Assembly (NCBI GenBank): GCA_013286145.1
Contig: JABDGH010000006.1
Span: forward strand, 1,689 to 65,688
Direction of reading: 5' to 3'
Source of the DNA: Verrucomicrobiota bacterium
GTDB taxonomy: Bacteria; Verrucomicrobiota; Verrucomicrobiia; Methylacidiphilales; UBA1321
DNA length: 64,000 nt
The notes below the pieces were generated by a model. It saw only the letters and a list, made by a program, of their open reading frames with translations, did no database searches and had not been told where the DNA came from. How positions within the stretch are numbered: the first letter of the stretch is position 1; every line of letters begins with the position of its first letter. Positions 38,890 to 52,393 of this stretch are shown here, piece by piece. Made by a program: the position numbers and the translations under genes.

Positions 38890-40107
38890 TCATTTTTTAT
38901 CCGGGATGCTGGCCACGCCGGGCAATTCGCGACCTTCGAGGAACTCAAGCGAAGCGCCGCCGCCGGTCGAGATGAAGGAGACTTTGTCCGCCACGCCAGC
39001 TTTCTTGACCGCTGAAACGGAATCGCCCCCGCCGATGATGCTGAGCGCACCGGAATTTTTGGCGATGGCATCCGCGATGGCAAAAGTACCTTTTGCGCAT
39101 TCAGCGACTTCAAAAACACCCATCGGACCGTTCCAGAGAATGGTTTTGGCTGCGGCAACTTCAGCGGAAAAAAGCTTTACGGTTTCCGGCCCGATATCGA
39201 CGCCTTCCCAACCATCGGGGATATCCTCACCCGGCTTGAGATAGTGGCCCGGCGAGACCGTCTTGGCCTTGAAGTCGAAGTTTTCGACGACATACGTATC
39301 GACGGGCAGAAGAAATTTGACGCCTTTGGCCTTGGCTTTATCGAGGGCTTCCCGGGCAATATGCACCTTGTCCGGCTCGGAAAGCGATTTGCCGATTTTT
39401 TTGCCGAGCGCGAGGGCAAACGTATAGGCCATGGCGCCACCGATAAGAATGGTATCGGCACGGTCGAGGAGACGGTCGATGACCTTGATCTTGTCGGAGA
39501 CCTTGGCACCGCCGAGGATGACGATGAAGGGACGCTTGGGATTTTCGAGTTCATCGCCGAGGAAGCGAAGTTCCTTTTCCATCAGGAAACCGATGGCGCG
39601 AACGGAAACATACTTGGCCACGCCCGCAGTCGAGGCATGAGCGCGATGGGCTGCGCCAAAAGCGTCGTTGACGTAAACATCGGCAAGCCTGGCGAGTTTC
39701 GCACTGAAAGCATCGTCATTGGCTTCTTCTTCATTATAGAAACGAAGATTTTCGAGAAGCGCGACTTCGCCGTCCTTGAGTTCCGCAGCGGCTTTCTCGG
39801 CCTTTTCGCCAATGCAATCATCGACAAATTTCACCGGGGCACCGAGCAGTTCGGAAAGCTTTTGTGCCGGAAGCGCGAGGCTTTGTTGCGGATCGCGTTT
39901 GCCCTTGGGTCGCCCGAGGTGCGCACAGAGAATCACCCGCGCTCCCTGTTCCATCAAATACTTGATTGTCGGTAAAGTCTCGCGGATGCGAGTGTCGTTG
40001 GTGATGACCTGTTTCCCCTCTTTTTCCTGCAAGGGAACATTGTAATCGACGCGGACAAGAACACGTTTGCCCTTCAGGGGGACGTCTCGAATTGTAAGTT
40101 TGGCCAT
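38890..40107 (-). CDS. pgk: Phosphoglycerate kinase
   Basis: Glycolytic kinase of 405 aa. The N-terminal RVDYNVPLQ, the substrate-binding HLGRPKG, the GGAKVSDKI segment and the C-terminal nucleotide site [13 protein letters not shown] with [13 protein letters not shown] are present. It lies 96 bases after gap, with a degenerate repeat element in that space. Confidence 0.97.
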
Positions 40108-40135
40108 AAGGATGGAATTTTTAATTAAAAAGCCT

Positions 40136-40196
40136 GTCGTACCGAGCTAGTCGAAGGATCTCTTCCTATTCCCTTTTCGGACAAGCCCGGGATGAC
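40136..40196. repeat. Degenerate short fold-back element
   Basis: The left end GTCGTACCGAGCTAGTCGAAGG and the right end TTCGGACAAGCCCGGGATGAC are recognisable but mutated versions of the GTCATCC family, and pairing is imperfect. It lies between gap and pgk and looks like a decayed copy. Confidence 0.65.
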
Positions 40197-40203
40197 TTGG
40201 GTG

Positions 40204-41274
<1,071 letters not shown>

Positions 41275-41281
41275 TTATAAA

Positions 41282-41437
41282 ATGCCAGATAGCGAAACTA
41301 GAGCCTACGGCGTCAGCGTCAACGGGAAAACAAAAACCGAAGGCTCTTGGCCTGAATGGAGCAACGGCAGCGATAACCCCGATAATGACAAACTGTTAAG
41401 TTGGTTTATGCCAAAATTAGAGATAAATTTAAGATGA
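41282..41437 (+). CDS. Possible 51-residue small protein
   Basis: A short frame starting ATG and ending TGA in the 242-base gap between gap and the Bax-inhibitor-like gene. The product would be polar and Asn/Ser/Gly-rich, with no recognised domain. GAGCCT/AGGCTC near its start could pair, so this may equally be a structured leader for the next gene. No ribosome-binding site is clear. Confidence 0.2.
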   Translation: MPDSETRAYGVSVNGKTKTEGSWPEWSNGSDNPDNDKLLSWFMPKLEINLR

Positions 41438-41486
41438 ATTTAACTGAAGACCCCGTAAGATTGATCCAATATAACAAGAAATAACT

Positions 41487-42230
41487 ATGACCACCTCCAA
41501 CCCAACTCTCAGCGCCTTTGGAAACGTAGGAACCATGGGGGTCAGCTACGGGACTTCCGAGACAATGACGGTTGACGGTACGATCCACAAGACAGGCATC
41601 CTGGGAACAATTTTGCTGATATTTTTTATCTTCACTTGGGTCGGGTTATCGCAGTCGCACATGCAGCCGACATTGCCGATCATCCTGGGGGCAATCGGGG
41701 GTCTTGTTCTGGCGCTCATCATCAGTTTTAAACCAACAACCGCGCCTTACCTGAGTCCGGCCTACGCGGGAGTGGAGGGATTCGTCCTGGCGGCGATCAG
41801 TTTCCCGCTGGAACTTGCCTATCCCCATATCGTGCTTCAGGCGGCTTCCATGACCATCGCAACGCTTTTCGGACTGTTACTGGCCTATCGAACCGGGCTG
41901 ATTATGGTGAACAGCACGTTCCGTGCGGTGATTGTCGGGGCGACGGTGACAATCGCGCTCTACTATCTGATCGGAATGGGTGCCATGCTTTTCCATGTGA
42001 CGCTGCCGGGAATCGGTTTCCAGGGCGGATGGCTTTCCATCGGCATCAGCGCGGTGATCGTGGTGGTAGCGGCGCTAAACCTCGTGCTCGATTTCGACAT
42101 GATCGCAAAAAACGCGGGATCCGCGCCGAAGTATATGGAATGGTACGGAGCGTTCAGCCTGATGGTGACGCTGGTCTGGCTCTACCTGGAAATTCTGCGC
42201 ATGCTGGCAAAATTGCGGGGCAGGAATTAA
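41487..42230 (+). CDS. Bax inhibitor-1/YccA family membrane protein
   Basis: A 247-residue protein with about seven transmembrane segments after a 35-residue polar N-terminus. Family traits include YLSPAYAGVEGFVLAAIS and a late acidic segment NLVLDFDMIAKNAGSAPKYMEWYGAF. Members of this branch (Bax1-I/YccA) are linked to FtsH or to ion leakage in other bacteria; the role here is not known. Confidence 0.88.
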   Translation: MTTSNPTLSAFGNVGTMGVSYGTSETMTVDGTIHKTGILGTILLIFFIFTWVGLSQSHMQPTLPIILGAIGGLVLALIISFKPTTAPYLSPAYAGVEGFVLAAISFPLELAYPHIVLQAASMTIATLFGLLLAYRTGLIMVNSTFRAVIVGATVTIALYYLIGMGAMLFHVTLPGIGFQGGWLSIGISAVIVVVAALNLVLDFDMIAKNAGSAPKYMEWYGAFSLMVTLVWLYLEILRMLAKLRGRN

Positions 42231-42285
42231 TTAGCAGGCATGTAAGCAGTCTTTCGTGTTCCTGTAAGCTGAAAGCATTTCCCAG

Positions 42286-42301
42286 CTTTGCCTAAGTGGC
42301 G
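42286..42301 (+). promoter_or_regulatory. CTTTGCCTAAGTGGCG motif
   Basis: Second copy of the 16-base sequence seen at 9586-9601 (one difference, A to G), here 59 bases before the sugar-isomerase-like gene. Same orientation relative to its downstream gene. Confidence 0.3.
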
Positions 42302-42360
42302 CTGTGGCGCTCTTTCAACCCAATCTTGACACCCTGTTACGCCCGGCACATTTTCACGAG

Positions 42361-43125
42361 ATGATCCCAATCGCGTTCCAGCCCTTTTCCGTTCATGAAG
42401 CCTTCCGAAAAGATTTTGCCGGGACGGTGAAGGAAGTCGCCAAAATCGGCTATGACGGCATCGAACTGGCCTGCACGCCCTTCGACTGGAAGGGAGATAC
42501 CCTCTCCGTCAAGGAGAGGCAAAAAATTGTGAGCGACCTGGGCATGAAGGTTTCGTGCATGCATGCCAAGTGGGAGGAGTTGGACAGGACTTTTGATCGG
42601 GTCGTCGAGGATGCGGCCACTTTTCAAACCGTCGATGTCGTCATTCCCTGGAGACCGCCGGAAATATTCACCTCGGCGGAAAAAATCATCGAGCTCGGTG
42701 AATTGCTCGGGGCCATGGGCGCGAAGCTTCACAAGGCAGGTCTCCATTTTAGTTATCACAATCACAACTACGATTATAAAGTCTGGGACGGGCTTCCCGG
42801 CGTGGAATGGATGATGCAGGTCACCGCGCCCCAGAATCTTTCCGTCGAGGTCGATACCTATTGGGTTTACCACTCTGGAAACGATCCCGTGAAGGCCATC
42901 AGCCGCCTGGGCACCCGCGCGCGATTTTTGCACCTGAAGGACGGGAGCATGACCAAGCAAACCGAACTGGGCAGCGGCGACATCGATTTCCGCGGCATTT
43001 TTGATGTGTGTGAAAAAGTTGGATCGGTGAAATGGTACATCGTGGAACAGGAGCAGTTCAATTTTGCCCCCATGGAAAGCATGCGCCTCAACCTCGAATA
43101 CATCAAAAGGCTGACCGGGGCTTAA
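42361..43125 (+). CDS. Sugar phosphate isomerase/epimerase family TIM-barrel protein
   Basis: A 254-residue AP-endonuclease-2/xylose-isomerase-like TIM barrel. Typical features are IGYDGIELACTPFDW, the metal-ligand region FSYHNHNYDYK, the late LHLKDGSM and WYIVEQEQF. Such proteins isomerise or epimerise sugars or inositols; the substrate cannot be told. The ATG at 42361 is preferred; an upstream start at 42304 adds 19 residues without family character. Confidence 0.85.
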   Translation: MIPIAFQPFSVHEAFRKDFAGTVKEVAKIGYDGIELACTPFDWKGDTLSVKERQKIVSDLGMKVSCMHAKWEELDRTFDRVVEDAATFQTVDVVIPWRPPEIFTSAEKIIELGELLGAMGAKLHKAGLHFSYHNHNYDYKVWDGLPGVEWMMQVTAPQNLSVEVDTYWVYHSGNDPVKAISRLGTRARFLHLKDGSMTKQTELGSGDIDFRGIFDVCEKVGSVKWYIVEQEQFNFAPMESMRLNLEYIKRLTGA

Positions 43126-43178
43126 CAGCTTGCTGAAAATGATCTTTTAAAAAAATCTGTCATCCCTAATTTTTTCCC

Positions 43179-43805
43179 ATGCAAATTACCAACAACGACC
43201 GCATTCTCTTCACTGGCGATAGCATCACGGATTGCAATCGCGTCCGCAGCAACACCAACCATCTTGGCTTTGGCTACGTGGCTTTTATCGCAGCACGTCT
43301 CCAGGCGCGGATGGCTTCCCCCGATTTGCAAATTTTAAACCGCGGCATCTCCGGGAATCGCATAGGCGATTTGCTGCTGCGCGTGGAACCCGATCTTCTC
43401 GACCTGCAACCGACGGTGATCTCGATCCTGCTCGGGATCAACGACACTTGGAGGCGCTATGACCACAATCTCCCGACCTCGACCGAGACTTTCGAAGATG
43501 GCTATCGCACGTTGCTCAAAAAAATCCGCCAACGACTCACGGCCAAGGTTATCCTGCTCGAACCGTTCCTCCTTCACGTGCCCGAGGACAGGTATGCGTG
43601 GCGGGAGGACTTGAATCCCAAGATCGACGTGGTGCGAAAGCTCGCAGCGGAATTTGATACGGACTTGCTGCCTCTCGATGGCCTCTTTGCGCAGGCGGCC
43701 ACGCGCGCGCCAGCAGCTTTCTGGGCGGAGGACGGCGTCCACCCAACCGAAGCCGGGCATGCGCTCATCGCCAATGCATGGCTCGATCATGTGGGCATGG
43801 CGTAA
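43179..43805 (+). CDS. SGNH/GDSL hydrolase
   Basis: A 208-residue esterase/lipase-fold protein. Block I is FTGDSITDC (nucleophile Ser), block II Gly in NRGISGNR, block III GINDT, block V DGVHPTEAGH with the Asp-His pair. There is no signal peptide, so it is probably cytoplasmic. Substrate could be an acyl ester or a sugar acetyl group. Confidence 0.9.
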   Translation: MQITNNDRILFTGDSITDCNRVRSNTNHLGFGYVAFIAARLQARMASPDLQILNRGISGNRIGDLLLRVEPDLLDLQPTVISILLGINDTWRRYDHNLPTSTETFEDGYRTLLKKIRQRLTAKVILLEPFLLHVPEDRYAWREDLNPKIDVVRKLAAEFDTDLLPLDGLFAQAATRAPAAFWAEDGVHPTEAGHALIANAWLDHVGMA

Positions 43806-43810
43806 AAGAA

Positions 43811-43946
43811 GGTAGCCGCCTTTTCCGCTCGAACGACCTCCGAGGTAGCCGCCGCTGTCCCTAGCGGCGGTGCCTCCCTCTGAGGTAGCCGTCGACCGCC
43901 GGGCGACGGTTCGGAAAATTCCCGCGCTCGGAGATCGCGGGCTACC
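43811..43946. repeat. REP cluster of three hairpins
   Basis: Three GTAG-headed hairpins in the gap between the SGNH hydrolase and ogt: 43845-43870 (CCGCCGCT/AGCGGCGG), 43885-43909 (CCGTCG/CGACGG) and, inverted, 43921-43945 (CCCGCG/CGCGGG). A decayed GGTAGCCGCC head lies at 43811. Stem sequences differ but pairing is kept. They match the hairpins flanking the RAYT gene. Confidence 0.85.
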
Positions 43947-44038
43947 AATAAGCCGAGGCAAGCTTCGGGGAATTACACCCGGAAAAAATGAAACGTATCG
44001 GTGGCATTACCCGTTAAGCCGATTACATTGGAAAGATT

Positions 44039-44584
44039 ATGACGACGATTTACACGCAAATTGAAAGCATCCTCGGGCCACTGTTGCTCGTGAGCCGCGA
44101 GAACAAACTCGCTGGCCTCTACTTTCTGGATCAACGCCACGCGCCACGAATTGGCAGCGATTGGATTCGGCAGGACGACGCCGCTATTTTCCTCCAGACC
44201 GAGGATCAACTCCGCGAATATGCCTCGGGAGAAAGAGAGCGTTTCGATCTCAAGATAGATTTGCACGGAACTCCTTTCCAACTGCAGGTCTGGCACGAGA
44301 TCAACGCCATCCCGTTCGGCCAGACAATCACCTATGGCGACCTGGCGAAGCGGGTCGGCGCGCCGCAAAGCGTCCGGGCGGGCGGAACGGCCACGGGCGC
44401 AAATCGCCTCTCCTGGATCGTACCGTGCCATCGCGTCGTCGGGAAAAATGGTTCGCTCACCGGTTATGCCGGCGGCCTCTCGCGCAAAAGCGCGCTCCTC
44501 GATTTCGAAGCCGCCAGATTAAGCGGCCAGGACGTCGCGCTCGCGTGGGATAACAATTGCGCCGCCCTTCCCGTCATGTCATAA
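44039..44584 (+). CDS. ogt: Methylated-DNA-[protein]-cysteine S-methyltransferase
   Basis: Suicide repair protein for O6-methylguanine. The acceptor Cys lies in WIVPCHRVVG, preceded by the helix-turn-helix FGQTITYGDLAKRVGAPQSVRAGG. Length 181 aa is normal. It precedes tRNA-Ser by 22 bases. Confidence 0.95.
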   Translation: MTTIYTQIESILGPLLLVSRENKLAGLYFLDQRHAPRIGSDWIRQDDAAIFLQTEDQLREYASGERERFDLKIDLHGTPFQLQVWHEINAIPFGQTITYGDLAKRVGAPQSVRAGGTATGANRLSWIVPCHRVVGKNGSLTGYAGGLSRKSALLDFEAARLSGQDVALAWDNNCAALPVMS

Positions 44585-44606
44585 AGGCAGGAAGCTCTTG
44601 ATACTT

Positions 44607-44696
44607 GGACGAGTGGCTGAGTGGTTTAAGGCATCCGACTTGAAATCGGACGAACTCTAAAAGGTTCCGTGGGTTCAAATCCTACCTCGTCCGCCA
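44607..44696 (+). tRNA. tRNA-Ser (anticodon TGA), CCA encoded
   Basis: Acceptor arms GGACGAG and CTCGTCC, D arm, anticodon loop CTTGAAA, a long variable arm as expected for Ser, and GGTTCAAATCC in the T arm. The 3' CCA is in the DNA. Its 3' side borders the KAP NTPase gene. Confidence 0.95.
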
Positions 44697-44839
44697 TCTC
44701 ACACTTGTTGAGAGAAAAAAGGATCGCAGACCATAAACGAAATTTAAGGCTGCTACGTGCCTGTCCTTTTTCCATAATTTGTACAGGAACTTAAATAGAT
44801 TCGGCTGGGTTTTCGAGTCGCGGCATCTTATTAAAGACC

Positions 44840-47113
44840 ATGAAAACCGACAAAGATGCAAGTAAGCACCATGAGTTTTCGACGGATGCCCCGAAAGAAT
44901 TCCCCAGCGAAGATCAATTGGATCGGTCGGGATTCTCTGAGGAAATTGCGCGTGCGTTAATTAATTGGCGCAACAAAGAAACCTTAGTTGTCAGTCTGTG
45001 CGGAGAGTGGGGAAGTGGAAAATCAACTCTTGCCAACTTCATCAAGCATCACTTGAGAAAATCAGATCCCGACGCACTCATTGTTGATTATAACCCTTGG
45101 GAATGGTCTGGGCAGGAGAAAGTATTTGAAGGCTTTTTTCGACAGATCGGCACGCTGTTCGGAAAGACGGATCGAAAGAAATGGACCCGGCGCCTCCTCA
45201 ATCGATGGCTTGGACTAGGCCTTACGCTCAAGTCAGCAAATATAGTAAGTACGACACTGCCTGGATGGATTCCCGCGATTATCGGACTTGTTGCTCTTTT
45301 CGGTATAGGAGCAAGAAATCAGCTTCAAAAGGACTGGCTTACAGTCAGTGCCTATGTACTTGTAACGCTCGCGGTAGTCTCTCCTCTTTTAAAAATTCCA
45401 GAGGCAATCGCCAAACTCCTTAAGGAATACCAACCAGATGAAACGTTGGATGATCTCCGCGATGAAATTGCCATTGAACTAAAAAAACTAGACCGACCAA
45501 TCATCATTTTTATCGACGATATTGATCGACTGACTGACACGGAAATTGCGCTGCTTTTCCAGCTCATCAAAGCAAACATTAAACTTCCAAACATCGTGTT
45601 TTTTCTCATGTTTCAGAAATCAGTCGTCACAACAGCCATTGGAAAATTGGTATCGGAAGATGGCTCCAAGTATTTGCGAAAAATCGTTCAGGTGGAGTGG
45701 GAAACGCCGATTCCGTTCGACGATCAAATTCGCCCCATCCTTCTCAACGGCCTTAACACCATTTTGAGCGAGGGAAACCCCAAAATTGAATGGGACAAAA
45801 GCCGATGGAACATTTTATTTTCAGACGGTCTGTGGCCCTACTTTGAAAATCTTAGGGACATAAATCGCTTCTTGAGCAGCTTCAAATTCTATTTCCGACT
45901 CCAATTGAAGGAAAACGTACTGGAGGTGAATCCACTCGATCTCATGGCAATTGAGGTTCTGCGGATGTTCGACAACCCTGCGTATACGGCTCTTGCCAAA
46001 AGCTCAGACTGGAATGAGCAGAGTGCAATGGCGCGTGTGTGGAGAGGAAAAAAAGTCCTGGAAGAAACCAAGATTCACTTGGATACCATTATCGAAGAGG
46101 ACGTTAGAAGCACCGTAAAGAAAGCTGCTCTCACAGCCATTTTGAAAAATCTTTTCCCCGAAGTTTATGGCTATCCAGGAACCCAAGATGATTTTCTAAA
46201 GGAACTTCGACTTTGCCATTCCGACCACTTTTATAAATATTTTCGAGGGAGCCTCGACTTGAAAAATGCCATTGCTTCCAGATGGCGTGATTTCTTGGCT
46301 GTGGCTGGAGACCGGGAGAAAGCCTGTATTGCTCTTCGTTCGGCGATCAATGAAGGGAGACTGGAAGAACTTCTCACTCATCTTTTTGCGGCCCGTAACA
46401 GCGTATCCTCTGTGGCTCTACTGCCGATTGTCACCGCCTTATTCGATGTTGCCGATGAATTTCCCAAAGTAAGCTTCGGCCCAGGCCTTTTCGATGCCCA
46501 AGTCACAGCATTTCGATTTATCCACTTTAGGCTTCTCAACGAATCGGTTGCCATTCGGACGCAATTGATAAAAACAGCAATCGCAGAAACGACCGGTTTT
46601 TCGCTTGTTTTATTTTTCATTTCCCATGAAGACACCGTCGCGCAGACGAGGCATCCAGAGCGTAACCATGTTGTTCTGGCCAGCGACGCGAAAGTGTTGG
46701 AAGACATGGGACTGAGTTTAATCAGGAAGCGAGCGCAAGATGGAATTCTGCTGAAAGGCAAACATGGAGTAGCTGCCATTTTCTTATGGCAAAACTGGGC
46801 ATCCCGAGAAGAGGTGGCGAAATGGGCAGTGGCCTTCGCATCAATCCCTGCTAATGCCCTGATTCTTTTAAACACTTTGATGACAGAGAGTAGTACCAAT
46901 GATGCGGCTCCAGAACCTCTTTTTATCGCAAGCACCTTCGAGCCTTTTATCGACTTAGTTTCACTCAAGACTTATGTCGATCAAGTCCCTACGTCAGACT
47001 TAAACGACTTGGAAAAGAAGCACGTGTTGCTTTTGAAGACTGCGGTTGATCGAAAAAATGCTGGGCTAGCTTACGAACAAATTCACTTTCGTGATTGCCC
47101 CGTAAATGGATAA
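44840..47113 (+). CDS. KAP family P-loop NTPase (possible phage-defence protein)
   Basis: A 757-residue protein. Walker A is GEWGSGKST at residues 55-63 and Walker B IIIFIDDIDR at 221-230; two hydrophobic segments between them (about 142-158 and 167-183) are the membrane insertion typical of KAP NTPases. A long helical C-terminal part is not recognised. KAP proteins anchor to the inner membrane, and some (such as PifA) exclude phages. The gene looks AT-richer than its neighbours, stands alone next to tRNA-Ser, and may be acquired. Confidence 0.85.
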   Translation: MKTDKDASKHHEFSTDAPKEFPSEDQLDRSGFSEEIARALINWRNKETLVVSLCGEWGSGKSTLANFIKHHLRKSDPDALIVDYNPWEWSGQEKVFEGFFRQIGTLFGKTDRKKWTRRLLNRWLGLGLTLKSANIVSTTLPGWIPAIIGLVALFGIGARNQLQKDWLTVSAYVLVTLAVVSPLLKIPEAIAKLLKEYQPDETLDDLRDEIAIELKKLDRPIIIFIDDIDRLTDTEIALLFQLIKANIKLPNIVFFLMFQKSVVTTAIGKLVSEDGSKYLRKIVQVEWETPIPFDDQIRPILLNGLNTILSEGNPKIEWDKSRWNILFSDGLWPYFENLRDINRFLSSFKFYFRLQLKENVLEVNPLDLMAIEVLRMFDNPAYTALAKSSDWNEQSAMARVWRGKKVLEETKIHLDTIIEEDVRSTVKKAALTAILKNLFPEVYGYPGTQDDFLKELRLCHSDHFYKYFRGSLDLKNAIASRWRDFLAVAGDREKACIALRSAINEGRLEELLTHLFAARNSVSSVALLPIVTALFDVADEFPKVSFGPGLFDAQVTAFRFIHFRLLNESVAIRTQLIKTAIAETTGFSLVLFFISHEDTVAQTRHPERNHVVLASDAKVLEDMGLSLIRKRAQDGILLKGKHGVAAIFLWQNWASREEVAKWAVAFASIPANALILLNTLMTESSTNDAAPEPLFIASTFEPFIDLVSLKTYVDQVPTSDLNDLEKKHVLLLKTAVDRKNAGLAYEQIHFRDCPVNG

Positions 47114-47138
47114 CACCGGAAAAATGGGACAGGCATCT

Positions 47139-47250
47139 TTAGGATAAGATGATGAACGGGGAGGGATTGCACCGCCTGCGGCGATGCTGTCGCGAGTCAG
47201 GCTTCTCGCTTTCCCGGCTGAATTCCTCCCCATTTTCTTATCTGGCCTAA
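47139..47250. other. Strongly folding noncoding stretch (possible small RNA)
   Basis: Within the 533-base gap between the KAP gene and tRNA-Asn. TTAGG-ATAAGA and GGGGAGGGATT pair with AATTCCTCCCC and TCTTATCTGGCCTAA to form a long rod with internal loops; GCCTG/CAGGC makes an inner stem. A second hairpin follows (GCCTAAAA/TTTTAGGC, 47245-47269). The outline recalls 6S-type rods, but I see no conserved motif that names a family. The strand is undetermined. Confidence 0.4.
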
Positions 47251-47336
47251 AAGGCTTATAATTTTAGGCGGGATAAGCCATTTAAGAGGTCTAAGACTAC
47301 CGCGTTTCATTCGGGCTGATGTAAAATCGTGGCTTC

Positions 47337-47519
47337 ATGACTTCGCTCCATTCTCATTCTTCTTCCAAAACCAACGAAACCCAACCGGCCACAACTCCGC
47401 CGGGTGTTCCGCGACTCACCTCGCTCCATCACCGCCTGCAGCACGCCAAGGGTGCCGACGGCCAGCCTATCCCCCTCCTCGCCGAACTCCTCTCCATACC
47501 ACCTCATACCACCCTGTAA
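47337..47519 (+). CDS. Doubtful 60-residue reading frame
   Basis: A short ATG frame rich in Ser, Thr, His and Pro in the gap before tRNA-Asn. No domain is recognised. Open frames on the other strand overlap it. I list it only because the gap otherwise holds no gene; it may be the decayed end of a former gene. Confidence 0.15.
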   Translation: MTSLHSHSSSKTNETQPATTPPGVPRLTSLHHRLQHAKGADGQPIPLLAELLSIPPHTTL

Positions 47520-47646
47520 CGGAACATCCCCATGCCCCCCTCCCCCCGTAGTTTCAGCACGTCGCGTGGTTGGAACCAGATTTCACCACAGATTATCTGC
47601 ATCGCGCTGCCGAAGGAGAAAGGAAAAAACAGCCGCTTCCAAGAGG

Positions 47647-47718
47647 CTCCGGAGGTAGGGCTCGAACCTACGACCAATCGGTTAACAGCCGACCGCTCTA
47701 CCACTGAGCTACTCCGGA
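47647..47718 (-). tRNA. tRNA-Asn (anticodon GTT)
   Basis: On the minus strand the acceptor arms are TCCGGAG and CTCCGGA, the D arm has AGCTCAGTGGTAGAGC, the anticodon loop is CTGTTAA, and the T arm holds GGTTCGAGCC. The full CCA end is not encoded (GCCT follows). Confidence 0.95.
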
Positions 47719-47789
47719 AAAACAGGGGAGCGAAAGTAAATCACACGCCCAAGGAGGAATCAATCCTTTTGGCAACCGCGCGGGTTGGC

Positions 47790-48656
47790 TTATTGCAGGG
47801 AAGCATCCGGCGTCGCAGGTTTCTTGACGCCTTGCGCGTCAGAAAGTCTTTCACGAGCCGTACTGGGATCCTGCACCATTCCGCCGGAAACCGTGACATT
47901 GCCATCTTCCATTTTGGCAAGGCGGGGCCGGACTTCATGGAAGGTTTTGAAGACGCGTTGATCGAGGACCTTTCCGCCCTCATCGGCCCGGGTGTAGAGG
48001 TAGGTGGACATGGCGATGGGCTGGATGATATGGATGTTTCCCTTCGGGTCGAAAAGGACGTCGGGCTCGACGGACGCGATTATTTCCCCGAGCGAGATAT
48101 TGGCGTAAACGATATTTTCATCGGGCGCTTCCACGCGTAAATAGAGCGCCGTGGTATCGGGCTTGGGCGAGAACGACAGGAGCGTATAGGTGCGCTGGGA
48201 GCCATCGACGGGGCGCACCTGGGTCCAGATTTTCCGGCCCTTGAGGACGGTGAAGGGTACCGGGGGCGAGATGATTTCGCCCTGGCCGGGCAGGTCGATG
48301 ACCGCAGATGCCTTGTACTCGCCTTCTTCGCGGAAGGAGAAAAGCGGCGTGAGGTTGATCCGAAGCGTCTTGGTCTCGCCCACTTTCAACTTGAGCGCAT
48401 TAAAATCGCCATGATGTTCCGGGGATACGGGCAAGCGGTTGTGCTTGGTGACCATGAAAGAGAGCCAGGGATGGCCTTCATCATTGTTGAGGATAAGATC
48501 GGTGTCGCCAATATTCACCACCGTGACGAGCAAATCGACCCGCTCGTAGAGAAGATAGTTGGTCCGTTCTGCCTGGGCCGAAACTTGAATCTGGGCCATG
48601 GCGATGGAACCCGCAGCCCATAAACCAAGCGCACCCATGAGGGCAAGGCATCTCAT
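47790..48656 (-). CDS. Exported protein of unknown function
   Basis: A 288-residue protein with a signal peptide (residues 1-22, ending AMA-Q). The body is beta-rich and suggests an Ig-like fold (ERTNYLLYERVDLLVTVVNIG at the start). Not recognised as a named family. It is divergent from the metallo-hydrolase gene and stands alone. Confidence 0.65.
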   Translation of the reverse strand: MRCLALMGALGLWAAGSIAMAQIQVSAQAERTNYLLYERVDLLVTVVNIGDTDLILNNDEGHPWLSFMVTKHNRLPVSPEHHGDFNALKLKVGETKTLRINLTPLFSFREEGEYKASAVIDLPGQGEIISPPVPFTVLKGRKIWTQVRPVDGSQRTYTLLSFSPKPDTTALYLRVEAPDENIVYANISLGEIIASVEPDVLFDPKGNIHIIQPIAMSTYLYTRADEGGKVLDQRVFKTFHEVRPRLAKMEDGNVTVSGGMVQDPSTARERLSDAQGVKKPATPDASLQ

Positions 48657-48749
48657 ATTTGAATTGAAGCTAAAGCAGCCAAGAGGGAAAACAAGACGAA
48701 TTTACGCTTTAGGCGTGAAATCTAACCAACTCCGGGCAATCTCAAGACC

Positions 48750-49559
48750 ATGTCATCCGAGAGCACTGCGTCCAAATTAATCGTCACCGTCCTGGGCTCG
48801 GGTACGTCCCAGGGTGTGCCGATGATTGGTTGCCGCTGCCCCGTTTGTCTATCGACCGATCCGCGGGACAGCCGGACGCGTTCTTCGATTCACCTGGCAA
48901 CACCGCATGCGAAAATTTTGGTCGATACGACTCCCGATCTGCGGAATCAAGCCTTGCGCGAGGGTCTGGATCATCTCGACGCCGTGCTCTTCACCCATCC
49001 CCATTCCGATCACATCATGGGCTTCGACGATCTGCGCCGTTTTTGTGAAATGAGGGGAGGCCCGTTGCCCATCTACGGCTCGGAACATACGCTGACGCAG
49101 TTGGAGCGCATTTTCTTTTACGCCTTCAACCCGAAGAAAATGATTCCCGGTTACGTGCATACCGTGTCTCATATTATCACTGGAACATTTGCCCTGGGTG
49201 GATTGGAGATCACCCCGCTTCCCGTGCCGCACGGCTCGGTGACGACCCTGGGGTTTCTCTTTTCAAATGGGGGACGAAAATTGCTTGCGTATATCAGCGA
49301 TTGCGCCGCCCTCCCGGATCCAATTCGCGAAATCGTAACCGGCGTGGAAATTCTCATCATTGATGGATTGCGGGAAAGACCTCATCCCACGCATCTGAAC
49401 GTGGCAGGCGCGGTGGAGGCAGCCCTGGCCATCGGCGCGCGGCAATCCTTCCTCACGCATCAGACCCATGAGAAAAGCCATGTCGATCGCACGGCGGGTC
49501 TCCCGGAGGGCATCGGTGTAACTTATGATGGGATGAAATTCGAATTTGAGTTAGAATAA
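48750..49559 (+). CDS. MBL-fold metallo-hydrolase, PhnP-like
   Basis: A 269-residue metallo-beta-lactamase-fold enzyme. The metal motif is FTHPHSDHIMGFDDLRRF, with further ligands in PHGSVTTLGF, YISDCAAL and LTHQTHEKSH. The opening VLGSGTSQGVPMIGCRCPVC resembles PhnP-type cyclic phosphodiesterases and includes their Cys-rich zinc loop. It lies seven bases before the next gene and is probably co-transcribed. Confidence 0.88.
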   Translation: MSSESTASKLIVTVLGSGTSQGVPMIGCRCPVCLSTDPRDSRTRSSIHLATPHAKILVDTTPDLRNQALREGLDHLDAVLFTHPHSDHIMGFDDLRRFCEMRGGPLPIYGSEHTLTQLERIFFYAFNPKKMIPGYVHTVSHIITGTFALGGLEITPLPVPHGSVTTLGFLFSNGGRKLLAYISDCAALPDPIREIVTGVEILIIDGLRERPHPTHLNVAGAVEAALAIGARQSFLTHQTHEKSHVDRTAGLPEGIGVTYDGMKFEFELE

Positions 49560-49566
49560 GTGCAAC

Positions 49567-51546
49567 GTGATCCTGTTTACGCGATCTGTCTGCTGTGCGG
49601 CGGCTTTCATCTGGCTGATCGGCATGGAATCGTTGATTCACGCAGAGGGTACCAATGCGCCGGACAGCAATCCGCAGCCAACGCATACACCGCTCGCATT
49701 ACCCTGGCTGAGCAAGCCCATGGCTCCCACCAATTCGGTTTCATCCTCTTTTCTCGATAGTCACCCCGAATTGACGCAGCCCATTCCATCGGAGCAGGGC
49801 CTTTCCTTGCATCAAGATACAACTCCCCTCGATAACACCGGGATTGTATCCGATCTTTCCGCTCATCTCACCAACCAGCCGGGCCAGCCCGAAAATCTCA
49901 CCGCTCATTTGTTGGTGGTTTACAATCAGGACGATCCCGACAGCAAAGAGCTTGCGACGTATTACGCCACCAAACGTGGTATCGCTGCGGATCATATTCT
50001 TTCCATTGCCTGCCCGACGAACGAGGAAATCACGCGCACGCAATACGAGGAGACGATCCGCGAGCCGATTATGACCTACATGAGCCAGAAAAACTGGATC
50101 GAACGCCAAAGCACGCGCGTTCGTGTGGGCAACCGGATACTGGATCTGCTCGTCGCCAACTACAATCATATCTGGGCCATTGTCCTGATACGCGGTGTAC
50201 CTCTGAAAATTGCTCCTGAATCGAGCCATGAGGCTGGCTTGGAGTCCGCGCCGGAATGGGCCACCAATGCCGCCGCTGTCGATAGCGAGCTGGCTCTTTT
50301 ACCGATCTTTGGTTTGCCTACCGGCGGCTTCATGCCCAATTCGTTTTTTGATGAGAAGATGACTGGGCTGCATCGCGCAGGACCCGATTTAGCCAAAAGA
50401 ATGATCATGGTGACGCGTCTCGACGGCCCAAAGCCGGAGGATGTCCGTCGGATGATCGACGACAGTCTTTACGCCGAGAAGAATCGGTTGGCGGGACTGG
50501 CGGTGGTCGATAGCCGGGGTCTCACGGATGTGAAAGATCCCTACCTCGTGGGGGACAACTGGCTGCGTCGGGCGCATGACCTGCTGACTGGTGATGGCTG
50601 GTGCGTGAAATTCGACGACAAACTCGATACCATTCCCGCCACCGACCCTTGCGACCAGGTGGCGCTTTATCTCGGTTGGTACAAGGGCGATGCCCTGGGT
50701 CCCTGGATTACCCCACCGAATCGTTTCGTCCCCGGTGCCATCGCCTACCATCTCCACTCCTTTAGCGCGAGCACGGTTCGCAGCGAAACCGTTGGCTGGG
50801 TGGGCCCGCTTATTTCTCACGGCGCAGCGGCCACCATGGGAATGGTCTATGAGCCTTACCTCGATATGACGCCGCACACGGATATTTTTACCAAGCGCCT
50901 TCTGGATGGAAATTCCTTTGCCGAAGCCGTCTACGCCTCAATAAAAGGTCTTTCCTGGATGGTGACCGTCGTCGGCGATCCGCTCTATCAACCCTTTCGG
51001 CGATCCCTGCCCGATGCGTTGGCCGATACCAGCATGGCCCATTCGGATCATCACGACTGGCTTCTCCTGCAAAAAACCCAACGCGCGTTCGCAACAGGAA
51101 AAATGCCCCCCTCAACCGATGCCCTGCAACATTCCTTGGATACTCCCGAAACCGGTCCCGTGGCACTTGAAGGCCTGGGCGATCTTTTAGAAAAATCGAA
51201 GGATCCTTCGGCAGGCCTGGCAGCGGAGAAAGCTTACAAAAAAGCGATGACCCTCGGCGCCGCCCCCATGGATCAGATTCGCATTGGGTTGAAGCTCGCT
51301 CAGCACTACGCCGATCACAAACGGGATGACCAGGCCCAGGCTGAGTTAAGATTATTGGCGCAAATCTATCCCCAGGACGCGCCACGTTTCGGTGTGACCG
51401 ACCGACCTGCGCCTGTAGCCATTCCTATTCCTCCCACAGATTCCGCTATCCATAACCAGTTTTGGACTCCGCAGGCAACCCAACAGGCTTCTTCTCCAAA
51501 TATGCCGCCAGGTCCGCCTCGTCCTCCCGGTCCGTCCAAACCCTAG
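49567..51546 (+). CDS. TIGR03790-like exported protein
   Basis: A 659-residue protein starting with GTG and a signal peptide (to about residue 27, HAEG). The segment LLVVYNQDDPDSKELATYYATKRGI and later GAAATMGMVYEPYLDMTPHTDIF match my memory of TIGR03790 proteins, whose function is unknown. The last 170 residues hold helical, TPR-like stretches and a Pro-rich end. It follows the metallo-hydrolase directly. Confidence 0.75.
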   Translation: MILFTRSVCCAAAFIWLIGMESLIHAEGTNAPDSNPQPTHTPLALPWLSKPMAPTNSVSSSFLDSHPELTQPIPSEQGLSLHQDTTPLDNTGIVSDLSAHLTNQPGQPENLTAHLLVVYNQDDPDSKELATYYATKRGIAADHILSIACPTNEEITRTQYEETIREPIMTYMSQKNWIERQSTRVRVGNRILDLLVANYNHIWAIVLIRGVPLKIAPESSHEAGLESAPEWATNAAAVDSELALLPIFGLPTGGFMPNSFFDEKMTGLHRAGPDLAKRMIMVTRLDGPKPEDVRRMIDDSLYAEKNRLAGLAVVDSRGLTDVKDPYLVGDNWLRRAHDLLTGDGWCVKFDDKLDTIPATDPCDQVALYLGWYKGDALGPWITPPNRFVPGAIAYHLHSFSASTVRSETVGWVGPLISHGAAATMGMVYEPYLDMTPHTDIFTKRLLDGNSFAEAVYASIKGLSWMVTVVGDPLYQPFRRSLPDALADTSMAHSDHHDWLLLQKTQRAFATGKMPPSTDALQHSLDTPETGPVALEGLGDLLEKSKDPSAGLAAEKAYKKAMTLGAAPMDQIRIGLKLAQHYADHKRDDQAQAELRLLAQIYPQDAPRFGVTDRPAPVAIPIPPTDSAIHNQFWTPQATQQASSPNMPPGPPRPPGPSKP

Positions 51547-51583
51547 CCTATTGGGAATTAATCGGTTCTGTCCAAGACAGTGG

Positions 51584-52393
51584 CTACTGCGCCGCAGAGG
51601 CATCGACAGCCTGCGAGTAAATGGGCTTGGGCGTGTTGGCCATGATGATCAGCATCGCACTTCGAAATTTCTTGTAATCGGGCAGCGCAAAAATTTGCAG
51701 GTAAGCGTCGATTTCCATGACCTGTTGATCCTTGATCACGTGCTCAAACCAGGTAAAGACTTCGGTGTTGGCATATTTGGGATCCTTGTCCCGCATCGCC
51801 TTGGTTGCATCCGGGTCGTAATTAAGCAGCAAGCGTCGTTTCAATTGTCTATTGGCATCCATGACCTCGGCCATCCACACCGTGTTGGGATTCTTGGTAT
51901 AATCAAAAAACTGGCTGATGATTATTTCCTGTTGATCGTGGTGAATGCGTTCCCGCACAAAGCAGAGCGATTTGCTGAATTCCGGAATCTTTCCACCATC
52001 GTGCAAGGCCCGGAACTCCTTTATCAACCGTTCGACTTTCACGTCGCGTCCCAACGATTGGTTGATCTGGATCAGCGATTCGATGGCCGCAGGATAATCG
52101 GGAACCAGCGCGTGGAGTTTCTCGAAATAATCGCTGGCCTTGGGCAATTCGTTCAACCGGACACTGATCAATCCCGCCTCGCGGAGGGAACCCTTTGCGC
52201 TCGGTTCCTGGGCCAGGATGCCATCGAAAATAGCGCGTGCTTCGGCCAGTTTTCCCTGCTGCTCAAGGTCGATGCCCTGCGCAAACCGCTTTTCGAAATT
52301 GGCGATTTTTACGGGATCCGTTGTCTCTGCCGACGCCCACCCGAAAGTGAGCGCCAGCAGAGGCAGAAGGAGCACGAAAAGAATCCTTATCAT
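51584..52393 (-). CDS. Exported TPR-containing protein
   Basis: A 269-residue protein with a signal peptide (MIRILFVLLLPLLALTFGWA, cleavage near SAE). Residues 30-110 form about three tetratricopeptide repeats (AQGIDLEQQGKLAEARAIFD). The remainder is unrecognised. The ATG at 52393 is preferred over 52414 because the signal peptide follows it. It probably mediates protein contacts outside the cytoplasm. Confidence 0.7.
   Translation of the reverse strand: MIRILFVLLLPLLALTFGWASAETTDPVKIANFEKRFAQGIDLEQQGKLAEARAIFDGILAQEPSAKGSLREAGLISVRLNELPKASDYFEKLHALVPDYPAAIESLIQINQSLGRDVKVERLIKEFRALHDGGKIPEFSKSLCFVRERIHHDQQEIIISQFFDYTKNPNTVWMAEVMDANRQLKRRLLLNYDPDATKAMRDKDPKYANTEVFTWFEHVIKDQQVMEIDAYLQIFALPDYKKFRSAMLIIMANTPKPIYSQAVDASAAQ

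What the first reader, a model, noticed from the sequence alone, without database searches (positions are those of the whole stretch)
44607..47113. Solitary KAP NTPase beside tRNA-Ser: candidate defence gene
The gene looks AT-rich, stands alone, and begins 143 bases after the 3' end of tRNA-Ser, a common integration target. KAP NTPases include phage-exclusion proteins such as PifA and appear in several defence systems. The large C-terminal half has no domain I can name.
Basis: partly seen in the sequence, partly recalled or inferred. Interest (0 to 1): 0.5.

Follow-up and report, generated by a model that had tools for sequence, protein, structure and literature searches.

The report
Horizontally acquired PifA-like defence gene
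A single foreign-looking gene sits between two tRNA genes of a Verrucomicrobiota bacterium and encodes a distant, probably membrane-anchored cousin of PifA, the F-plasmid protein that aborts phage T7 infection; it is most likely an acquired anti-phage gene of a known kind.

Summary
ORF 44840-47113 (757 aa) starts 143 bases after tRNA-Ser(tga), stands alone, and has the lowest GC and GC3 of 42 mechanically chosen window ORFs of 200 aa or more. It is a KAP NTPase and matches PADLOC's PifA model almost end to end, C-terminal half included (residues 10-716, E 5.3e-57). That half models as an all-helical domain. Two hydrophobic segments interrupt the NTPase domain, as in only 4 of 82 aligned family members.
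None of 7 same-genus genomes shows a full-length homologue. The gene lies between converging tRNA-Ser and tRNA-Asn; integrase-like ORFs follow these tRNAs in some relatives. Two relatives carry PifA-like genes in 6-kb elements with integrase, G2P-type initiator and att repeats.
No integrase or att repeat was found at the window locus. A tRNA-Ser bias in 5 of 14 first loci was absent in 12 later ones. Best reading: an acquired single-gene defence of the PifA kind; function untested.

The parts
44607..44696 (+). tRNA-Ser(tga); left border of the variable interval; a tRNA-Ser(tga) carries an integrated element in a same-family genome (G009)
   Evidence: ARAGORN; att repeat and integrase in L079
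44720..44773 (+). decayed MITE/REPIN-like repeat (right half with core GTGCCTGTCC.TTTTTCC kept, left core lost)
   Evidence: similar stretches elsewhere in the same genome; fold
44840..47113 (+). PifA-family KAP P-loop NTPase, 757 aa, solitary gene
   Evidence: ORF; Pfam; PADLOC PifA; profile match to F-plasmid PifA
45002..45025 (+). Walker A, residues 55-62 GEWGSGKS
   Evidence: G60-K61 kept in 81 of 82 aligned family members
45257..45391 (+). two hydrophobic, TM-like segments (residues 140-158 and 166-184) inserted between Walker A and Walker B
   Evidence: hydropathy; low-confidence region of the model (pLDDT under 50 for 139-197)
45503..45529 (+). Walker B, residues 222-230 IIFIDDIDR
   Evidence: D227, D229, R230 in 82 of 82
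45905..47110 (+). C-terminal all-helical, solenoid-like domain (residues 356-757)
   Evidence: AlphaFold2 pLDDT 88.4; only weak fold matches; 379-459 residues in 82 aligned members
47119..47137 (-). second TGCCTGTCC repeat (single core), starts 5 bases after the stop codon
47204..47567 (+). dispersed repeat of about 360 bp; other full or partial copies in the same genome mostly at 83-95% identity; not part of the gene
47645..47718 (-). tRNA-Asn(gtt), 3' end facing the gene; right border of the variable interval; followed by integrase-like ORFs in 3 of 6 same-genus genomes examined

Best explanation
The gene is a horizontally acquired single-gene anti-phage defence of the PifA kind, stranded as cargo in a tRNA-bounded variable interval (tRNA-Ser to tRNA-Asn). 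Inferred mechanism: the helical C-terminal domain senses a phage product, ATP binding or hydrolysis by the KAP domain switches the protein (perhaps as a ring), and the inserted hydrophobic hairpin carries the response to the cell membrane, so the infected cell leaks and the phage fails (abortive infection), as reported for F-plasmid PifA. Shown: family, intact ATPase motifs, domain layout, two hydrophobic inserts, AT-rich composition, no homologue found in same-genus genomes, and integrase-like genes at both kinds of flanking tRNA in some relatives. Inferred: trigger, oligomer, membrane lesion, and that an integrase element brought the gene here.
For: PADLOC PifA model, residues 10-716 against 2-699 of 720, E 5.3e-57; F-plasmid PifA itself scores 963 bits on that model and aligns over 655 columns to the three-sequence profile at 99.9%. 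Walker A and B intact. Lowest GC and GC3 of 42 ORFs. 0 of 7 same-genus genomes with a full-length homologue. At tRNA-Ser(tga), G009 holds an integrase, a G2P-type Rep and a PifA-like gene inside a repeat of the tRNA 3' end; in the same genus G007, 1 of 4 tRNA-Ser(tga) loci read, has a 102-aa DUF6538 ORF (recalled as an integrase N-terminal domain) directly after a 98% identical tRNA-Ser. Integrase-like ORFs follow tRNA-Asn in 3 of 6 same-genus genomes read (G004, G006, G001); the G006 fragment has no Pfam hit but is 61% identical over 125 residues to the G009 integrase. PifA-like genes also sit beside ResIII, type III methylase and AAA genes (L078) and near an annotated anti-phage dCTP deaminase (Vibrio plasmid); 9 IMG/VR loci encode relatives. 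PifA is described as membrane-associated, triggered by T7 gp10 and gp1.2, with ATP loss (PMC9311878, passages).
Against: No relative of the four tested integrases in window 40001-52000 and no repeat of either tRNA end downstream. Three of the four same-genus tRNA-Ser(tga) loci read (G002, G005, G006) have no obvious integrase after the tRNA (by eye). Identity to F PifA only 19.8% over 677 aligned columns, and F PifA is a long, unsure branch outside the window's supported clade. F PifA shows no such hairpin by the same hydropathy test, so membrane action by this route is not a shared family trait. No pifC-like neighbour. Codon distance only rank 8 of 42. No sigma-70-like promoter site upstream. 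No match in 50,697 phage records at E 1e-5.
Confidence: 0.6

Rival explanations
1. The gene is a PifA-family NTPase acquired by transfer, but it acts through a soluble, RdrA-like ring or some other output rather than by a membrane lesion.
For: Best solved-structure match is RdrA of the RADAR defence system, Z 16.7, rmsd 5.0, 352 residues, above ORC/Cdc6 at about Z 12; it also ranks first in Foldseek (E 1.1e-3). 65 of 82 aligned family members have no TM-like segment in the insert, 13 have one, 4 have two.
Against: Foldseek gives no PDB match at E 0.001 or better; no ORF of RdrB size adjoins (RdrB size recalled). This protein is one of the four with two hydrophobic segments.
Confidence: 0.2
2. 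The gene is cargo of a transposon whose ends are the two inward-facing TGCCTGTCC repeats that bracket it, moved by a Y1 transposase.
For: At up to 3 mismatches the two repeats are the only copies in 64 kb (0.07 expected) and lie directly before and after the gene; 32 exact copies of the core in the genome against 0 for the reversed control; 12 inward-facing pairs around one or two ORFs or none were seen elsewhere in the genome, 7 of them with GC 0.47 or less.
Against: Orientation is the reverse of the one clear element: in G006 a Y1 transposase is enclosed as GGGGACAGGCATC ... gene ... GATGCCTGTCCCC (L244), so genes such as this one lie between neighbouring MITE copies, not inside one. The upstream copy is a decayed dimer of its own. 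The tie to Y1 is itself thin: 16 of 21 Y1-like loci in the genus carry no copy, and the own genome's only Y1 gene found has another repeat. With a looser pattern the window holds 4 hits against 7 for the control.
Confidence: 0.06
3. It is not a defence gene but a KAP NTPase with a cellular role (for example membrane-bound signalling) that happens to lie in a plastic region.
For: KAP NTPases also occur outside defence (recalled; the eukaryotic Kidins220 is a known member). I know of no phage assay for this clade.
Against: Patchy presence: 10 of 387 genomes of the phylum sample and 20 of 384 of the class sample at E 1e-20, own genome included; found on plasmids (27 records), in viral contigs (9 loci) and in integrative elements; phyla are mixed in the tree.
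Confidence: 0.14

Closest known systems
PifA of plasmid F (phage T7 exclusion)
   Same: KAP NTPase of similar length (741 aa) with the same two-part layout; profile match over most of its length
   Different: about 20% identity; F PifA lies on a long branch and lacks the two-segment hydrophobic hairpin; F gene is next to pifC, this one stands alone
PifA-like genes in Verrucomicrobiota integrative elements (G009 at tRNA-Ser, G598 at tRNA-Lys, G185 at tRNA-Ser)
   Same: same gene family, in an element at a tRNA 3' end
   Different: those keep an integrase and, in two of three, a G2P-type replication initiator and att repeats; none was found at the window locus
Tmn, a KAP NTPase defence gene with two transmembrane domains
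   Same: KAP domain with two membrane segments (description in PMC11846954, passages)
   Different: sequence not compared; I did not obtain a Tmn sequence
RdrA of RADAR
   Same: best structural neighbour of the NTPase half (Z 16.7)
   Different: not among the 4 PDB sequence hits up to E 1; no RdrB-sized neighbour
Verrucomicrobia bacterium AV71 homologue (L155)
   Same: nearest relative found: 37% identity in its best segment, 34% over 601 columns, sister in the tree with full SH-aLRT support
   Different: its reading frame seems broken near the start (the ORF begins inside the match); it lies near a CopG/PIN toxin-antitoxin-like pair and no tRNA was found in its 13.9 kb

Membership tests
KAP P-loop NTPases (PF07693) | KAP domain above the curated cut-off with Walker A and B | tested here: met
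   140.5 bits against cut-off 20; motifs at residues 55-62 and 222-230
KAP P-loop NTPases (PF07693) | transmembrane segments inserted in the NTPase domain (feature named in the title of Aravind et al. 2004, seen only as a reference entry) | tested here: met
   two 19-residue windows at 1.90 and 1.94 Kyte-Doolittle between the Walker motifs; a hydropathy test only
PifA protein family | match over nearly the whole PifA profile, C-terminal part included | tested here: met
   profile positions 2-699 of 720, E 5.3e-57; next best model E 1.7e-14
PifA protein family | groups with F-plasmid PifA in a tree | tested here: inconclusive
   F PifA is the longest end branch (2.94) and its place is unsure
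PifA protein family | phage exclusion triggered by phage products | not testable with these tools
   needs a plating assay
F-plasmid pif operon | pifC repressor gene directly upstream | tested here: not met
   upstream neighbour is tRNA-Ser, then an ogt-like ORF; in F pifC adjoins the pifA gene
RADAR (RdrA-RdrB) | adjacent rdrB gene | tested here: not met
   flanking long ORFs are 181 and 288 aa; RdrB size is recalled
Tmn | sequence relationship to a validated Tmn | not tested
   no Tmn sequence obtained; no PADLOC hit by that name, which is no proof of absence
tRNA-integrated element | insertion at the 3' end of a tRNA gene, variable among relatives | tested here: met
   143 bases after tRNA-Ser; no full-length homologue in 7 same-genus genomes, and tRNA-Ser followed by other genes where read
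tRNA-integrated element | integrase gene | tested here: not met
   no integrase-like ORF between the tRNAs; none of the integrases of L079, L261, L147 and L121 matches window 40001-52000
tRNA-integrated element | direct repeat of the tRNA 3' end at the far border | tested here: not met
   no exact match of 12 or more bases downstream for either tRNA in window 40001-52000; best 24-base match has 8 mismatches for tRNA-Ser

The most novel reading that the evidence does not exclude
PifA-family genes in Verrucomicrobiota are recurrent cargo of very small, self-replicating tRNA-targeted elements (tyrosine integrase, G2P-type rolling-circle initiator, one PifA-like gene; about 6 kb), assembled at least twice from unrelated integrases and initiators, and the window gene is such cargo left behind, in a membrane-hairpin variant of the family.
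Probability: 0.2. Interest if true: 0.6.

Novelty: new member of a known kind. Interest (0 to 1): 0.4.

Why it matters
PifA is a long-known phage-exclusion protein, yet its trigger-to-lesion mechanism is thinly described in the passages seen here. This survey shows a broad family with a constant layout (KAP domain plus a helical domain of about 400 residues), conserved residues to mutate, and a small subset with a clear membrane hairpin, which makes the mechanism testable. It also shows two 6-kb elements that carry a PifA-like gene with little else, a simple vehicle for moving a single-gene defence.

Tried and rejected
Tried and set aside. (1) tRNA-Ser as a preferred home of PifA-like genes: 5 of the first 14 Verrucomicrobiota loci scanned (window, L079, L082, L146, L147) had a tRNA-Ser in the fetched stretch (in L082 the gene is only a C-terminal fragment, in L146 the tRNA is 6.7 kb away), but 0 of 12 loci from the later class sample did (several of these 12 are weak KAP matches, L257 is the same contig sequence as L168, and four contigs are about 11 kb or less). 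Of 80 loci from all prokaryotes 15 had any tRNA, about what tRNA density alone would give by my rough estimate. Rejected as a rule. The two weakest matches (L006, L007) were not scanned. (2) The flanking TGCCTGTCC repeats as transposon ends of the gene: disfavoured on orientation; the repeat fits the GGGGWSAS motif reported for Y1-transposase TIRs in PMC3733652 (passages; the fit is my reading). (3) REP-bounded single-gene cassettes: such units exist (12 pairs), but 6 of 10 encoded proteins scanned have no Pfam hit and none of 5 scanned has a PADLOC hit; left as an observation. (4) att repeats elsewhere: in L146 a 14-base exact repeat lies inside an N6 methylase ORF and may be chance; in L082 a 12-base repeat lies just past the PifA fragment, also weak; none was found in L147, whose contig ends soon after the gene. 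(5) A known fold for the C-terminal domain: best Z 8.9 at rmsd 10.7, Foldseek none at E 0.001; I claim only an all-helical, solenoid-like shape. Absence of a family from those lists excludes nothing. Of 94 loci searched for an ORF of 550 aa or more, 86 gave one; for the tree I dropped three duplicates (L195, L179, L194) and two short ORFs (L190, L178) and added the window, 82 rows. The tree is the quick method and many rows have skewed composition. (7) Literature searches for PifA with KAP, NTPase and phage (0 papers), PifA with Verrucomicrobia (2 unrelated papers by their listing) and Verrucomicrobiota with defense systems, integrative, tRNA and satellite (0 papers) found no earlier report; the library holds only open-licence papers. 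A Pseudomonas island study already lists PifA among systems in one hotspot (PMC12629846, passage); the P2/P4 hotspot paper PMC9122126 does not hold the word PifA.

Full report
What is there. The window belongs to genome G000, a 2.33-Mb assembly in 103 contigs at 66% completeness. That it is Verrucomicrobiota is inferred: G009, placed in the same family, and G388 and G185, in the same class, have contigs of the same length as named records of that phylum. tRNA-Ser(tga) lies at 44607-44696 (+) and tRNA-Asn(gtt) at 47645-47718 (-), so their 3' ends face each other. Between them the only long ORF is 44840-47113 (+), 757 aa. Its GC (0.458) and GC3 (0.470) are the lowest of 42 non-overlapping ORFs of at least 200 aa; its codon distance is only eighth.

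What the protein is. Pfam finds KAP_NTPase at 9.1e-41. PADLOC's PifA model matches residues 10-716 with E 5.3e-57, far above the next model at 1.7e-14. F-plasmid PifA (741 aa) matches it by BLASTP only in the NTPase half, 26% over 286 columns, but the profile of the window protein and its G008 and G009 relatives aligns with it over 655 columns at 99.9% probability. In an 82-sequence alignment the C-terminal part measures 379-459 residues in every row, the Walker A G-K pair is kept in 81 of 82, and D227, D229, R230 and R339 in 82 of 82. The tree places the window protein with L155 (37% identity in its best segment) at full support, inside a supported 14-row clade with nine rows from the phylum (window, L155, L168, L079, L078, L144-L147) beside Citrobacter, a Shewanella and a Vibrio plasmid, Chloroflexota and Acidobacteriota; F PifA is a long branch of unsure place. 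So it is a member of the wide PifA family, not shown to be an orthologue of F PifA.

Domain layout. Between Walker A and B lie two hydrophobic stretches, residues 140-158 and 166-184. By the same hydropathy test 4 of 82 aligned members have two such stretches, 13 have one and 65 none; F PifA has none. The nearest relative L155 could not be judged because its ORF starts late, although its first residues look hydrophobic. The full-length AlphaFold2 model is fair (mean pLDDT 78.5, pTM 0.67, residues 139-197 unreliable); the NTPase half resembles RdrA best (Z 16.7, rmsd 5.0, 352 residues), then ORC/Cdc6 at about 12, while Foldseek finds nothing at E 0.001. The C-terminal domain alone, with 56 sequences, models well (pLDDT 88.4, pTM 0.75) as an all-helical array; matches are to helical-repeat proteins in general and weak (best Z 8.9). 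A sensor role for it is inference by analogy with other NTPase-plus-solenoid proteins.

How it came here. Seven same-genus genomes (66-94% complete) show no full-length homologue; the best is a 60-residue match at 2.7e-4 in G002. The neighbours are conserved as separate blocks: the ORF pair 47790-48656 and 48750-49559 occurs together in all seven same-genus genomes, and the pair 43179-43805 with 44039-44584 in two of the five ogt-like regions read, but none of these regions holds a tRNA. A 98% identical tRNA-Ser in G007 is followed by a DUF6538 ORF of 102 aa, a GYF_2 ORF and a DUF4238 ORF; the tRNA-Ser(tga) of G002, G005 and G006 is not followed by an obvious integrase. In the same-family genome G009 tRNA-Ser(tga) is followed by a phage integrase, a G2P-type initiator and a PifA-like gene, closed by a 27-base repeat (93% identical, 21 bases exact) of the tRNA 3' end 6.5 kb away. 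Integrase-like ORFs follow tRNA-Asn in 3 of 6 same-genus genomes read: G004 (Phage_integrase), G006 (a fragment without Pfam hit, 61% identical over 125 residues to the G009 integrase) and G001 (integrase SAM-like domain). Both kinds of tRNA that border the window gene are therefore integration sites in some relatives. At the window locus no integrase and no tRNA-end repeat was found, so delivery by such an element is plausible but not shown.

A recurring small element. In G598 a tRNA-Lys is followed by a phage integrase, two small ORFs, a PifA-like gene and a G2P-type initiator, closed by an exact 27-base repeat of the tRNA 3' end, 5.9 kb in all (PifA model E 1.7e-66). In G185 a tRNA-Ser(gga) is followed by an integrase, a Mob_Pre relaxase and, further on, a PifA-like gene near the contig end. 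The integrases of G009 and G598 are only 23% identical over 166 residues and their initiators show no significant similarity to each other, so the same module set seems to have been put together from different parts. That is 3 of 26 Verrucomicrobiota loci scanned for tRNAs (14), some of them weak KAP matches and many on short contigs. An apparent link with tRNA-Ser in the first 14 loci (5 of 14) was absent in the 12 later ones and is not claimed. Relatives also occur in 27 of 72,556 plasmid records and 9 IMG/VR loci, but in none of 50,697 phage records.

The flanking repeats. GTGCCTGTCC.TTTTTCC lies at 44757 and, inverted, at 47119-47137. The core TGCCTGTCCNNTTTT occurs 32 times in the genome against 0 for the reversed pattern, often as inverted dimers with about 60 bases between starts; the two dimers folded form stable hairpins. 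In G006 one Y1 transposase is enclosed by the same repeat with GGGGACAGG pointing inwards (L244), and another has three copies within 1 kb (L249), but 16 of 21 Y1-like loci in the genus have none, the own genome's included, so the link to Y1 is probable rather than firm. The repeat fits the TIR type described in PMC3733652 (passages). The dimers have the orientation of the G006 element without its gene, that is, they look like MITEs; the window gene lies between two copies, so they are more likely neighbours than its transposon ends. The repeats mark the interval as a landing zone, as does the 360-bp dispersed repeat at 47204-47567.

How it probably works. PifA is described as membrane-associated, activated by T7 gp10 and gp1.2, and causing ATP loss (PMC9311878, passages). 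By homology and layout I propose sensing by the C-terminal domain, an ATP-driven switch in the KAP domain and, in this variant, membrane action through the inserted hairpin. I put about 0.7 on a defence function of some kind and about 0.5 on a membrane lesion given that function; both are inference. The overall confidence of 0.6 is for an acquired PifA-kind defence gene.

Verdict. It is a new member of a known kind, with modest extra interest in the membrane-hairpin variant and in the two minimal integrase-Rep-PifA elements found along the way.

Noticed in passing
L079 9499-16100 (G009:C11): 6.5-kb element at tRNA-Ser(tga): integrase, unknown ORFs, G2P-type replication initiator, PifA-like KAP gene, bounded by a repeat of the tRNA 3' end.
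   Followed up: partly
L261 6685-12659 (G598:C1): 5.9-kb element at tRNA-Lys with the same module set (integrase, PifA-like gene, G2P-type initiator) and an exact 27-base att repeat.
   Followed up: partly
L027, L032, L025, L040, L038, L039 (own genome): Runs of single, often low-GC orphan genes separated by TGCCTGTCC MITE-like repeats; one encodes a DUF4304 protein, one HEAT repeats; 6 of 10 such proteins scanned have no Pfam hit.
   Followed up: partly
window 47204-47567; G000 C23, C11, C12, C47, C1, C17, C83: A dispersed repeat of about 360 bp, mostly 83-95% identical between copies, several of them next to a TGCCTGTCC repeat; nature unknown.
   Followed up: no
L082 6617-9325 (G018): tRNA-Ser(cga), then a gene matching PADLOC PDC-S54 (E 1.4e-146) and a PifA C-terminal fragment: looks like a decayed defence island.
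   Followed up: partly
L217 5200-12598 (Microbacterium sp.): tRNA-Ala with a 30-base repeat starting at its last bases, recurring just past a PifA-like gene; integrase not looked for with a profile.
   Followed up: no
L227 12181-13260 (Planctomycetota): An ORF that reads like a phage integrase directly after the PifA-like gene (by eye only).
   Followed up: no
L136 and L137 (IMG/VR contigs): PifA-like genes on contigs whose neighbouring ORFs read like phage structural genes (by eye only).
   Followed up: no
L080 632-1174 (G000:C2): The genome's only Y1 transposase found is flanked by a different inverted repeat (CCCGGACAACTTGTTGTCCGGG on one side and its like on the other), not by the TGCCTGTCC repeat.
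   Followed up: partly
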